Part shown: in pieces, positions 1 to 58,807 of the stretch
How positions within the stretch are numbered: the stretch's first letter is position 1
Layout: each line of letters opens with the position of its first letter
DNA from: Saprospiraceae bacterium
GTDB lineage: Bacteria > Bacteroidota > Bacteroidia > Chitinophagales > Saprospiraceae
Assembly: GCA_020630435.1 (NCBI GenBank)
Contig: JAHDBJ010000013.1
Location: forward strand, 1-64,000
Reading direction: 5' to 3'
Length of the DNA: 64,000 nucleotides
Made by a program: the position numbers and the translations under genes
The notes under the pieces: model-generated
The model's database searches: none
What the model was told of the DNA's origin: nothing
What the model saw: only the letters and a program-made list of their open reading frames with translations

Positions 1-51
1 CAGAGGTCTGCAAAACCTTGTACGGCGGTTCGAATCCGCTCCCGACCTCCA
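1..51 (+). tRNA. tRNA-Cys (GCA), 3' part
   Basis: The window opens inside a tRNA gene. An anticodon stem of GAGGT and ACCTT encloses the 7-nt loop CTGCAAA, so the anticodon is GCA (Cys). A T-arm with the loop TTCGAAT follows, then the 3' acceptor strand CCCGACC, discriminator T and an encoded CCA at 49-51. A U at position 73 is typical of cysteine tRNA and supports the call. The D-arm and 5' acceptor strand lie before the window. Confidence 0.93.
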
Positions 52-21746: not shown

Positions 21747-22868
21747 TTACAATTGATTTCCAAAGGATAGTACTTTTTCTGCAAAACGTTCCCAAGAATT
21801 TTCTGCTTTTTGAGCTTCCAAGTTTTTTGAAAAAGCGATTTTATAATTTTTATTAAAATATATATGAATAGCGTCGGCAATAGCCTTACTATCGACTTCA
21901 GGAACTATCAATCCAGTTTCTTTGTGTGTTATAATTTCTTTTAGTCCGCCTACATCAGTTGCGATGATGGGAACAGCAAAATGGTGTGCAATCGCTGTAA
22001 TGCCACTTTGAGTCGCAGATTTGTAAGGAAGGACAACCACGTCAGCCGCACAGAAAAAATTAGGAACTTCAGGATCTCCGATATATTGATTGAAAACATG
22101 AATGTTTTGCTTGAACGTTGACTTTTCAATAAGGCGGGTATATTTTTCAAAACTACCATAACATTCTCCAGCGATAACCAACTGGAAAGAATCATCTAAA
22201 TGATCCATTGCTTGTATCAATAAATCTAACCCTTTATAATCTCGGATAAAACCAAAGAAGAGTATCGTTTTTTTCTCAGGGGGGAGCTTAAGTTGTTTTG
22301 CAGCATCGGATTTAGGGACATTAGCTCCAAAGTGGTCATAGTTAGGATGGTTTATTCTAAGGCATTGGGCTTTGCCATCGGTTAGTTGCATTAGGTCAGC
22401 CTGAACAGCATCGCTCATTGCGATAAACCCATGATTTTGTTTGAGAAAATATTTGGTAAAAGGCGTATCAAAAAAACGCTTTTCATGTGGGATAACATTA
22501 TCAAGAATCGTGATAACCTTTGTTTGTGTTTTGAGATGCTTTGCTACTGTTCCTAAAGAAGGACCAAAGAAAGACATCCAATATTTCATAATTAAAAAGT
22601 CAGGATTGAAGGCTTTGATTTGCTTTGCAGTAGACCCGTAAGAAAAGGGATTGATTGTGTCCAATAGTTCTAAACTATCAATTTTATCCACGTTATCATC
22701 CTCGGTAACATACTGTGTTTCGCCAGGAAAAAGAAAGTCGGGGTACTGTCTTTTAAAAGTATAGGCTTTGACGTCATGTTCTTGCTCAAACGCTCTATAC
22801 ATCGCAGCATTAAACTGGGCAATGCCTCCTCGAAGTGGGTAAAAAGTGGATAAAAAAGCTATTTTCAT
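21747..22868 (-). CDS. Glycosyltransferase family 4 (GT-B) protein
   Basis: 373 residues. The N-terminal half opens with a GGIAQFN donor/acceptor loop. The C-terminal half has FFGFIRDYKGLDLL, an AADVVVLPYKSATQSG segment and PIIATDVGGLKEI, typical of GT1/GT4 sugar-nucleotide transferases with the GT-B fold. Target unknown; together with the preceding GT9 gene it suggests surface glycan or LPS assembly. ATG at 22868. Its whole upstream gap is one copy of a 101-bp repeat with a hairpin, so translation may depend on that element. Confidence 0.85.
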   Translation of the reverse strand: MKIAFLSTFYPLRGGIAQFNAAMYRAFEQEHDVKAYTFKRQYPDFLFPGETQYVTEDDNVDKIDSLELLDTINPFSYGSTAKQIKAFNPDFLIMKYWMSFFGPSLGTVAKHLKTQTKVITILDNVIPHEKRFFDTPFTKYFLKQNHGFIAMSDAVQADLMQLTDGKAQCLRINHPNYDHFGANVPKSDAAKQLKLPPEKKTILFFGFIRDYKGLDLLIQAMDHLDDSFQLVIAGECYGSFEKYTRLIEKSTFKQNIHVFNQYIGDPEVPNFFCAADVVVLPYKSATQSGITAIAHHFAVPIIATDVGGLKEIITHKETGLIVPEVDSKAIADAIHIYFNKNYKIAFSKNLEAQKAENSWERFAEKVLSFGNQL

Positions 22869-22969
22869 CTGTTTATTTTTATTTCCTGTTAAGGTCAGAT
22901 GGAACTTACCATAATTAAATAATGATTTCCTTGTGTGTTTAAGGATTATTTAATCATGGACGTTTCATA
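22869..22969 (-). repeat. 101-bp intergenic hairpin repeat, copy 1
   Basis: Read on the minus strand, this fills the gap between the GT9 stop and the GT4 ATG. It matches 57996-58096 (+ strand) at 93 of 101 positions with no gaps. Arms at 22944-22959 and 22909-22924 form an imperfect 16-bp hairpin with a 19-nt loop containing ACACACAAGG. A conserved GGTAAGTTCCATCTGACC block follows, then an A-rich tail running into ATGAAAA. Confidence 0.8.
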
Positions 22970-56983: not shown

Positions 56984-58000
56984 ATGCAAGAATTAAAAAG
57001 ACATTCGCCTTTTTGGATTTTAATCTATATCGTATGGACGTTTATGAAGTCTGGAGGTGGTGAAAAATTAGGGATATACTTGCTTATAAACTTAGTAAAT
57101 ATTCCTATTTATATGGCGGCGTTTTATACGCTTAAATATGTTCAAATTCCTTATCTTTTGAATAAAGGTAAGTATGTTTTATTTGTGCTAAGTCTGGCAT
57201 TCATGTCTTTTGTATTGTATCTTTTTTGGAGAATCAACGGGGTACTATGGATGGATGAGATACGAGGATTAAAAAACATTCCGTTTATGAACTTTCTGAG
57301 GTACTTGACGTATTCTGTTCAGTTTTATTCTCCCGCAATGGCCTTATTGGCATGGGATAACCATCTAGATAAAATTAAAGAACGAGAGCGATTACAAGAA
57401 CTAGAAAAGGAAAAATTAGCCACAGAACTCAAGTACCTCAAAGCCCAGCTTAACCCACATTTTTTATTCAACACCCTTAATAATTTATATTCTTATGTAA
57501 TCATGCAGTCGCCCAAAGCTCCCGATATGATTTTACGATTATCAGGGATTTTGGATTATGTATTATATCGGAGTCAACAAAAAACGGTTCCATTAAAGGA
57601 AGAAGTAGAAACCATAGAACATTTTTTAGAATTAGAAAAAATTCGTTATGGAGAACGCTTGAATGTAAGATTTGAAGCAAAAGGCAATTTAGATATACCC
57701 GTTTCTCCGCTGTTATTACTTTCCTTAGTAGAAAATGCTTTCAAGCATGGCGCAAGTGGAGATATAGATTCTCCTGAAATAGTTATCGACTTACTGGGAG
57801 AGGAAGACTATATTGGATTCAATGTTTGGAATACAAAAAGTAAATATAAAGGTAGAAAAACAGATGATTACAAGGAAGGGATAGGTTTGTCGAATATTAA
57901 ACGGCAACTCAACCTGATTTATCCTCAAAAACACACTATTTCTATAGACGAAACAGAAACCACTTTTACTGTTTTATTAACGATTCAAAAAGAATTATGA
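56984..58000 (+). CDS. LytS-type sensor histidine kinase (system 3)
   Basis: 338 residues: four transmembrane helices in the first ~125 residues, a charged helix, phospho-acceptor H159 in QLNPHFLFNTLNN, and an ATPase domain with LVENAFKHG and GIGLSNIKRQL. The stop codon TGA is itself the beginning of the 101-bp repeat that separates it from the regulator gene. It is the nearest in style to the system 1 kinase. Confidence 0.92.
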   Translation: MQELKRHSPFWILIYIVWTFMKSGGGEKLGIYLLINLVNIPIYMAAFYTLKYVQIPYLLNKGKYVLFVLSLAFMSFVLYLFWRINGVLWMDEIRGLKNIPFMNFLRYLTYSVQFYSPAMALLAWDNHLDKIKERERLQELEKEKLATELKYLKAQLNPHFLFNTLNNLYSYVIMQSPKAPDMILRLSGILDYVLYRSQQKTVPLKEEVETIEHFLELEKIRYGERLNVRFEAKGNLDIPVSPLLLLSLVENAFKHGASGDIDSPEIVIDLLGEEDYIGFNVWNTKSKYKGRKTDDYKEGIGLSNIKRQLNLIYPQKHTISIDETETTFTVLLTIQKEL

Positions 58001-58096
58001 AACGTCCATGATGAAATAATCTTTAAACACACAAGGAAATGATTATTTCATCATGGTAAGTTCCATCTGACCTTAATGTGAAATAAAAATAAACAG
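57996..58096 (+). repeat. 101-bp intergenic hairpin repeat, copy 2
   Basis: Fills the gap between the kinase stop and the regulator ATG. A perfect 16-bp hairpin is formed by CCATGATGAAATAATC (58006-58021) and GATTATTTCATCATGG (58041-58056) around a 19-nt loop. The block after it and the A-rich tail up to the ATG match copy 1 (22869-22969, minus) closely. Eight of 101 positions differ, and one pair in the stem changes from G-C here to T-A there. Confidence 0.85.
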
Positions 58097-58807
58097 ATGA
58101 AAAAGATAAAATGCCTATTGATAGATGATGAACCACCAGCTGTTGAGTTGCTAAAGAAGTATGCCAGTATGATTGAACAGCTAGAAGTTGTAGGAACAAG
58201 TCATAATGCCTTGAAGGCATTTGATATGCTGAAGGATAAAGAAGTTGATTTGATTTTTCTAGATATTCAGATGCCCATTTTAAGTGGCATAGATTTTGTC
58301 AAAACGCTTAAAGACCCTCCTGCCGTTATTTTTACAACCGCCCACCGAGAGTATGCCCTAGAAGGCTATGAATTAGATGTCGTTGATTATCTCCTTAAAC
58401 CAATTGCCTTTGATCGCTTTTTAAAAGCGGTAGATAAATATCGAAATAGAATAACGACGTTAAGTTCAACGTCAAATTTTTCAAAAGAAGCCCCAAAAGA
58501 CGATTTTATTTTTTTTAATGTAAATAAAACCAATCATAAGGTCTTTTTTAAAGATATTTTATTTGTCGAAAGTTTAAAAGATTATGTACGAATCCATACA
58601 ACAGAAAAAAAGTTAGTGGTCAAAGGGAATTTAAGTACTTGTATGAAGCAATTGTCCGATGAACAATTTATCCGAATTCACCGTTCCTATGCGATTGCCC
58701 TACAACATATACAATCCTATAATCAAAGCGAAGTAACCATTCATACTATAAGCCTACCTGTAGGGATGAGTTATAGAGACGCTTTTCTTAAAAGAATTCA
58801 AAAATAA
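58097..58807 (+). CDS. LytTR-type response regulator (system 3)
   Basis: 236 residues: receiver with D10/D11, phospho-acceptor D56 (IFLDIQMP) and LLKPIAFDRF, then a LytTR domain (about 135-236) with FVESLKDYVRIHT and FIRIHRSYAIAL. Unlike systems 1 and 2, the gene does not overlap its kinase; a 101-bp hairpin repeat lies between them, directly abutting the ATG, which may uncouple expression. It is convergent with trpB, with only 2 bp between the stop codons. Confidence 0.93.
   Translation: MKKIKCLLIDDEPPAVELLKKYASMIEQLEVVGTSHNALKAFDMLKDKEVDLIFLDIQMPILSGIDFVKTLKDPPAVIFTTAHREYALEGYELDVVDYLLKPIAFDRFLKAVDKYRNRITTLSSTSNFSKEAPKDDFIFFNVNKTNHKVFFKDILFVESLKDYVRIHTTEKKLVVKGNLSTCMKQLSDEQFIRIHRSYAIALQHIQSYNQSEVTIHTISLPVGMSYRDAFLKRIQK

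What the first reader, a model, noticed from the sequence alone, without database searches (positions are those of the whole stretch)
57996..58096. Two 101-bp intergenic repeats with a covarying hairpin, each abutting a start codon
Copy 2 (57996-58096, +) and copy 1 (22869-22969, -) are equal in length, align without gaps and differ at 8 of 101 positions. Each spans the gap between an upstream stop and a downstream ATGAAAA, before unrelated genes (LytTR regulator; glycosyltransferase). Both fold into a 16-bp hairpin with the same 19-nt loop; one stem pair changes compensatorily (G-C to T-A). A conserved GGTAAGTTCCATCTGACC block follows. This looks like a mobile intergenic repeat or a conserved 5' regulatory RNA inside operons.
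Basis: seen in the sequence. Interest (0 to 1): 0.68.

Follow-up and report, generated by a model that had tools for sequence, protein, structure and literature searches.

The report
Mobile element inserting at start codons
A tiny DNA hairpin element, without genes of its own, has jumped again and again onto the start codon (ATGAAA) of unrelated genes in Bacteroidota, copying that start codon each time so that the gene stays readable; I found no described family that it fits, and what moves it is unknown.

Summary
The two repeats are real and are two of about 26 copies in this 5.1 Mb genome. They belong to a mobile family spread over Bacteroidota (16 of 396 and 12 of 395 surveyed genomes with strict patterns; reversed-pattern control 0 and 1 hits). 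Empty sites in relatives show what it is: in Algoriphagus the element (92 bp at one locus) is inserted exactly at ATGAAA, normally start codon and Lys2 of the next gene, with a 6-bp ATGAAA duplication, so the gene keeps its start. Anatomy: ATGAAA, covarying closing stem, variable apical hairpin, conserved block TTCCATNTGACC, A-rich leader, CANATGAAA. The block can pair with both ends, and its pairing with the 3' end covaries (C-G, G-C, A-T). Minimal 44-52 bp forms keep only stem, block and leader. In G793, 29 of 37 terminal copies sit at start-like ATGAAA, against 402 of 3,425 sites. Best reading: a non-autonomous element moving as a folded single strand, its block guiding cleavage at ATGAAA as in IS200/IS605 elements, by an enzyme in trans. 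No enzyme is linked: Y1 transposases are not adjacent and were not found in one copy-rich genome. Rival: a translational switch, since folding predicts that the block covers the gene's AUG.

The parts
57997..58096 (+). copy 2 of the element (100-bp unit including the left ATGAAA)
57997..58002 (+). left ATGAAA; its TGA (57998-58000) is the stop of the upstream histidine-kinase gene
58006..58021 (+). 5' arm of the hairpin, copy 2
58041..58056 (+). 3' arm of the hairpin, copy 2
58061..58072 (+). conserved block TTCCATCTGACC (proposed guide)
58073..58096 (+). A-rich leader ending in CAG
58097..58102 (+). right ATGAAA = start codon and Lys2 of the LytTR gene
58097..58807 (+). response regulator with LytTR domain, downstream of copy 2
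   Evidence: Pfam PF00072 and PF04397
56984..58000 (+). histidine kinase upstream of copy 2
   Evidence: Pfam PF06580
22869..22968 (-). copy 1 of the element (100-bp unit)
22963..22968 (-). left ATGAAA of copy 1
22893..22904 (-). conserved block TTCCATCTGACC, copy 1
22863..22868 (-). right ATGAAA = start codon and Lys2 of the glycosyltransferase gene
21747..22868 (-). glycosyltransferase (group 1) downstream of copy 1
   Evidence: Pfam PF00534
22980..24086 (-). glycosyltransferase family 9 gene upstream of copy 1
   Evidence: Pfam PF01075

Best explanation
A family of very small (about 44-130 bp) mobile elements without genes. SHOWN: insertion is exactly at ATGAAA, with one ATGAAA left on each side (6-bp duplication). 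The site is usually a gene's start codon, so the gene, and an upstream gene that ends in the overlapping TGA, stays intact. SHOWN: the closing stem and the pairing of the block TTCCATNTG with the 3' end CANATG covary. INFERRED: the element moves as a folded single strand. On the antisense strand it reads 5'-TTTCAT^CTG - T-rich spacer - GGTCAGATGGAA - hairpin - TTTCAT^-3', which is the IS200/IS605 (IS608) order cleavage site - guide - hairpin - cleavage site, with one hairpin and one guide serving both ends. The guide pairs alternately with the left and the right TTTCAT, and by the same pairing selects new TTTCAT/ATGAAA targets. An enzyme acting in trans (HUH type as the first guess) cuts and rejoins. 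Start codons dominate because ATGAAA is a common gene start and because a start-codon insertion regenerates the start and is tolerated, whereas insertions inside genes are removed by selection. The A-rich stretch before the right ATGAAA supplies a new leader. My confidence is about 0.95 in the mobile element with ATGAAA duplication, about 0.6 in guide-directed movement of a folded strand, and about 0.35 in a Y1/HUH enzyme.
For: Empty sites, locus 1 (L154): in 8 of 57 matching Algoriphagus genomes both flanks abut with exactly 6 bases of overlap; the site reads ATGAAA in 6 and ATGCAA in 2. Locus 3: the 44-bp form of L124 is missing by length (43-45 bases) in 5 genomes. Stem position 1 is Watson-Crick in 92% of 112 distinct stems (at most 63% in 500 shuffles), position 2 in 68% (at most 36%). 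Block-to-3'-end pair, where fetching did not fix it: 38 of 39 listed places and 20 of 21 in G793 (C-G 4, G-C 11, A-T 5); over all loci 141 of 146 (most loci had been fetched as C-G). Minimal forms keep stem and block. Tandem arrays fit re-insertion at the new ATGAAA.
Against: No enzyme is linked. Of the 30 best Y1 (PF01797) loci in Algoriphagus only L271 has an element nearby, itself inserted in the gene's 3' end (a weak match in L260 lies in the gene and looks like chance). G292, with 23 pattern copies, has no Y1 by two searches; G798 and G821 have only partial matches; G806 has Y1 genes but no element match. One Y1 gene each of G000 and G099 is flanked by other palindromes. No replication bias in G793: 19 of 37 copies point with the fork (inferred from skew) against 229 of 432 control starts (my sums). 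Strand clues conflict: tandem G.A pairs in 41 of 112 stems, none of the complementary kind, favour the sense strand; A.C over G.T (28 to 13) the antisense strand. RNAalifold on 51 rows predicts only the block-3'-end helix. In the pair counts the covariation score exceeds all shuffles, but the number of pairs and of pair types does not. The base before the left ATGAAA does not follow block base N. A duplication could also come from a recombinase core.
Confidence: 0.6

Rival explanations
1. Regulatory RNA: the element is kept because its RNA is a translational switch. The block pairs either with the upstream AUGAAA (closing stem) or with CAGAUGAAA, covering the gene's start codon; a signal or the translation of the upstream AUG shifts the balance.
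For: Two mutually exclusive pairings of similar predicted weight (mean probability 0.36 and 0.49 over 161 elements); the gene's AUG is mostly paired (mean unpaired 0.15), and more open than the upstream AUG in only 38 of 161. The covariation reaches the base just before the start codon.
Against: The 16 downstream proteins of G000 scanned are of many kinds; presence is patchy between relatives; tandem arrays and decayed copies look like mobile DNA; 8 of 37 terminal G793 copies are not at a start-like site. Precise empty sites show insertion, although a mobile switch is not excluded.
Confidence: 0.15
2. A double-strand site-specific recombinase (tyrosine or serine type), possibly acting on a folded strand like integron attC, moves the element as a circle; ATGAAA is the exchange core.
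For: A fixed 6-bp sequence duplicated at both ends is what exchange at a core would leave; tandem arrays.
Against: No inverted recombinase arms are seen around ATGAAA at the target: flanks differ between sites, and in G793 the one clear preference found is a pyrimidine just before ATGAAA (29 of 32 against 244 of 432 control starts). The ends do not match the integron core site as I recall it. Recombinase genes were not searched for.
Confidence: 0.2
3. RNA-mediated copying: the transcript of the element is reverse transcribed into ATGAAA sites, with block-target pairing in the way introns recognise exons.
For: Sense-strand features (tandem G.A pairs; folding z lower for the sense than the antisense strand in 33 of 41 sampled elements); guide-like pairing with the flanking ATGAAA.
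Against: Reverse transcriptases were not searched for; the element is too small for a known self-splicing intron (general knowledge); a copy lies in antisense in a Y1 gene.
Confidence: 0.1

Closest known systems
IS200/IS605 elements (IS608, ISDra2) and their gene-free derivatives
   Same: Subterminal hairpin, short guide pairing with a short fixed target, insertion next to that target (mechanism as described in passages of PMC6006769).
   Different: One hairpin and one guide for both ends, identical sites at both ends giving an apparent 6-bp duplication, no transposase seen inside or next to copies, no fork-orientation bias in G793.
REP sequences and RAYT (TnpA-REP) systems, incl. Bacteroidetes subclass 2.6
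   Same: Short, hairpin-forming, non-coding, many copies per genome; most genomes tested also have Y1 genes.
   Different: No GT[AG]G foot; not flanking the Y1 genes examined; precise ATGAAA target, mostly gene starts; two Y1 genes looked at have other palindromes.
MITEs of DDE transposases
   Same: Short, non-autonomous, target duplication.
   Different: No terminal inverted repeats; the duplicated site is a fixed sequence.
Byps (translational bypassing elements of yeast mitochondria; recalled, not looked up)
   Same: Small mobile hairpin insert in coding sequence that leaves the gene usable, with matching codons at both ends.
   Different: Sits at the start codon, so no ribosome hopping is needed.
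Repeats met in my paper searches (P. gingivalis MITE, PMC4596501; TAACTGA repeats, PMC4679880)
   Same: Repeats in Bacteroidetes or near genes (search listings and starts of abstracts only).
   Different: By those abstracts, other things: short TAACTGA direct repeats in Beggiatoaceae; a MITE holding a minisatellite.

Membership tests
IS200/IS605-type single-strand transposition | Guide sequence complementary to the flanking target | tested here: met
   Block pairs with ATGAAA at both ends with one mismatch (G.T on the antisense strand); covariation at the 3' end. The mismatch is common but not invariant: e.g. L015 and L022 have TTTCAT
IS200/IS605-type single-strand transposition | Y1/HUH transposase in the element or in the genome | tested here: not met
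   None inside any copy read; not adjacent; no Y1 found in G292 by two searches, though 9 of 10 genomes have a Y1-like match
IS200/IS605-type single-strand transposition | Insertion bias relative to replication | tested here: inconclusive
   19 of 37 against 229 of 432 control starts in G793; low power, origin not located (sums)
IS200/IS605-type single-strand transposition | Single-stranded DNA intermediate | not testable with these tools
   needs experiment
REP/RAYT | Repeat copies flank a RAYT gene (REPtron) | tested here: not met
   1 of the 30 best Algoriphagus Y1 loci, and that one is an insertion in the gene end; none in the 8 Y1 loci of G000, G127, G076, G099
REP/RAYT | GT[AG]G tetranucleotide at the foot of the hairpin | tested here: not met
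   Foot is ATGAAA(C/T) and (G/A)TTCCAT in the alignment
DDE MITE | Terminal inverted repeats | tested here: not met
   Ends ATGAAACG... and ...AAACAG
Rfam RNA family | Match above the gathering score | tested here: not met
   None over the element in the window; the one sub-threshold overlap is a miRNA hairpin model at E 0.77
Translational switch | Two alternative covarying helices, one covering the start codon | tested here: met
Translational switch | Effect on expression | not testable with these tools
   needs reporter assay

The most novel reading that the evidence does not exclude
A new kind of transposition: a gene-free element of under 100 bases carries its own nucleic-acid guide (TTCCATNTG) that recognises its two ends and its target, ATGAAA, through base pairing, is moved in trans by an enzyme not yet known, and so colonises start codons across a phylum, installing at each a leader whose block can cover or free the start codon, i.e. 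a mobile translational switch.
Probability: 0.3. Interest if true: 0.88.

Novelty: new variant of a known kind. Interest (0 to 1): 0.77.

Why it matters
It is a mobile element whose usual target is the beginning of genes and which regenerates the start codon it lands on, so it can replace the leader of gene after gene without destroying them. That makes it a natural source of new translation-initiation regions in Bacteroidota, which generally lack Shine-Dalgarno sequences (PMC8710568, passages). A base-pairing guide that reads both its own ends and its target, with natural covarying guide variants, could be tested directly in harmless laboratory Bacteroidota. Gene callers and promoter studies in this phylum will also meet these 5' repeats.

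Tried and rejected
Autonomous form: no copy with a gene between the ends was noticed among the loci read or in 2.4 Mb of G793. L057, L112 and L187 lack a clear left end and look decayed. Plasmid and phage collections: no match. Y1/RAYT as the linked enzyme: rejected as linked, not excluded in trans. Mini-ORF (ATG AAA CGT CCA TGA, MKRP*) as a conserved leader peptide: rejected, its length and sequence change between lineages. My idea that the stem hides the upstream AUG and leaves the gene's AUG open was contradicted: the gene's AUG is the more open one in only 38 of 161. Block base N dictating the base before the target: no correlation. Empty site of the window's own copies: not testable; G001, the only same-genus genome in the relatives drawn, matches copy 2 by the element only (copy 1 not tried), and flanks of its own copy are not found in G000. 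Probable chance matches of the patterns: L083, L160, G766, and viral L408, L409, L411-L413. Literature: eight full-text searches gave no description of such an element; only listings and starts of abstracts were seen, except passages of PMC6006769 and PMC8710568. Preprints and most subscription journals are not held. The middle part of the output was cut and not read.

Full report
OBSERVATION. The two 101-bp stretches are as described: 8 differences, no gaps, perfect 16-bp stem in copy 2, a compensatory G-C to T-A change at stem pair 8. The loop differs by one base and copy 1 has one G.T pair and one C.C mismatch. Folding z-scores are -4.97 and -4.57 for the sense strands, -4.44 and -2.65 for the antisense strands. 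Rfam has no match at the element.

COPIES IN THE GENOME. BLAST of copy 2 against the window's own assembly (G000, 5.12 Mb, 70 contigs) gives 27 places, about 26 copies because one (L020 and L026) is interrupted. Of 25 copies with a readable 3' end all 25 stop at ATGAAA, and 22 have an ORF of at least 150 aa starting there. Nearly all copies with a left end begin with ATGAAAC. Sixteen of the 22 downstream proteins were scanned: among them LytTR regulator, glycosyltransferases, ribulose-phosphate epimerase, nucleotidyltransferases, menaquinone biosynthesis, TetR, amidohydrolase, desaturase, HerA helicase.

DISTRIBUTION. The pattern CCATCTGACC-N6..34-ACAGATGAAA occurs in 16 of 396 genomes of the order (13, 20, 25 and 23 copies in G000, G127, G076 and G292), with no hit for the reversed control. 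With S (C or G) at the two variable places it occurs in 12 of 395 genomes of the phylum (29 copies in G590; G766 is probably chance), the reversed control once. Of 8 viral contigs with a looser pattern three look convincing (L200, L410, L414); the L200 copy precedes a gene with a phage baseplate Gp10 C-terminal match.

EMPTY SITES. Query: 1.2 kb around the Algoriphagus antarcticus copy L154, against 60 Algoriphagus genomes, 57 of which match. The genus is named from G832, which matches the A. algorifonticola locus L100 at 100%. In eight genomes query bases up to 506 and from 593 match adjacent places that overlap by exactly six bases; sequences read ...TTTGGTAA-ATGAAA-AAA... or alike, with ATGCAA in two of the eight. 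The element is therefore 92 bp with a six-base ATGAAA duplication at the start codon. G823 holds a decayed copy at the same site; in the other matching genomes the junction has diverged or was not read. A third, the 44-bp minimal element L124 of Chitinophaga cymbidii, is missing by length (43-45 bases) in five genomes checked from the match table. The window's own copies could not be tested in this way (for copy 2; copy 1 not tried).

ANATOMY. ATGAAA; a closing stem whose first bases after ATGAAA pair with the bases before TTCCAT; a variable apical part, often ACACANNGGG-ATGATTAT; TTCCATNTGACC; an A-rich stretch; CAN-ATGAAA. Without selecting for pairing (220 distinct places; 161 distinct elements with a single candidate left end, giving 112 distinct stems; 39 places without and 13 with several candidates left out), stem position 1 is Watson-Crick in 92% (shuffle maximum 63%) and position 2 in 68% (shuffle maximum 36%). 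Base N and its partner pair in 141 of 146 distinct arms (C-G 117, G-C 17, A-T 7), but most of these loci had been fetched with C-G fixed; where the letters were freer the figures are 38 of 39 listed places (C or G only) and 20 of 21 G793 copies with a canonical block. On a 51-row alignment pair 7-82 is U-A 27, C-G 22, other 2; the covariation scores exceed all 500 shuffles, while the numbers of covarying pairs and of pair types do not. RNAalifold on the same rows gives only the block-3'-end helix; the two helices exclude each other. Forty-one of 112 stems carry tandem G.A pairs. In most copies TTCCAT is the complement of ATGAAA but for one base; some G000 copies differ, and rows were chosen to have TTCCAT. 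Minimal forms (L124, L177, L200, L410) keep stem, block and leader only. Tandem arrays of up to three near-identical units occur (L096, L197).

TARGETS. In 2.4 Mb of the Algoriphagus genome G793 a profile gives 44 hits at E up to 0.01; 41 end in ATGAAA, four of these run straight into another copy, and of the 37 terminal ones 29 start an ORF of at least 60 aa. Of 3,425 ATGAAA outside elements 402 are start-like (p = 1.5e-20); counting only start-like plus intergenic sites it is 402 of 787 (p = 8e-4). For the control sites an in-frame stop within 30 codons upstream was asked in addition, which cannot be asked of the copies. So there is a strong excess at starts, much of it explicable by selection against hits inside genes. 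Eight copies are not at start-like sites, one of them antisense in the 3' end of a Y1 gene, so the target appears to be the DNA sequence and not the act of translation. A pyrimidine precedes the left ATGAAA in 29 of 32 against 244 of 432 control starts.

MECHANISM. On the antisense strand the order is TTTCAT - CTG - spacer - guide AGATGGAA - hairpin - TTTCAT. This is the layout of IS608 ends (guide 5' of the hairpin foot pairing with the flanking target or terminal tetranucleotide; passages of PMC6006769) compressed on one hairpin. This is why I favour movement of a folded single strand with the block as guide. It is an inference. No Y1 gene is linked, none was found in copy-rich G292, G806 has Y1 genes but no element match, and copies in G793 show no bias relative to replication (19 of 37 against 229 of 432; sums). 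Strand clues conflict.

FUNCTION AT THE RNA LEVEL. Folding 161 elements with flanks predicts that the gene's AUG is mostly paired (mean unpaired probability 0.15) and that the two pairings of the block compete at similar weight (0.36 and 0.49). A cost or a control of translation is therefore possible, and a mobile switch is the boldest reading. Nothing here measures expression.

NOVELTY. The general kind, short gene-free mobile repeats, is known. The fixed start-codon target with start regeneration, the single guide for both ends and the phylum-wide spread match no family that I could find.

Noticed in passing
e.g. L311:6865-6991 (+), L395:389-512 (-): In about 16 of 41 G793 copies (counted by eye in the list) a GC-rich palindrome of about 20-25 bases (REP-like, CCCGTTTCCTTCGTCACGGGACAGG and others) sits inside the block, mostly just after CCAT; the hybrids recur at several places and may have multiplied as such.
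   Followed up: partly
L056 (G149 C91:9684): A copy almost identical to those of G000 lies in a genome of another family of the order: recent horizontal transfer or a misassigned contig.
   Followed up: no
L020/L026 (G000 C50:47749-48020): One copy is interrupted by about 150 bp of other DNA.
   Followed up: no
L011 and L018 (both ends of G000 contig C60): Contig C60 begins and ends inside a copy with about 50 shared bases: an assembly break in the repeat, or a circular 82-kb molecule.
   Followed up: no
L042 and L071 (G292 C1:3319-3401, 437891-437975): Tandem arrays of 45-47 bp hairpin-less units whose junctions read (A/G)TGAAA.
   Followed up: partly
L030 (G044 C11:208214): A copy sits between what look by eye like infA and rpmJ of the ribosomal-protein operon, in front of the rpmJ start codon.
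   Followed up: no
L077 1180-1330; L079 1290-2110: Y1 genes of G000 and G099 with a long HUH-Y distance (subclass 2.6-like) are flanked by their own palindromes, unrelated to this element.
   Followed up: partly
window 1-48: Part of a tRNA gene cut by the window start (Rfam tRNA, 29.3 bits).
   Followed up: no
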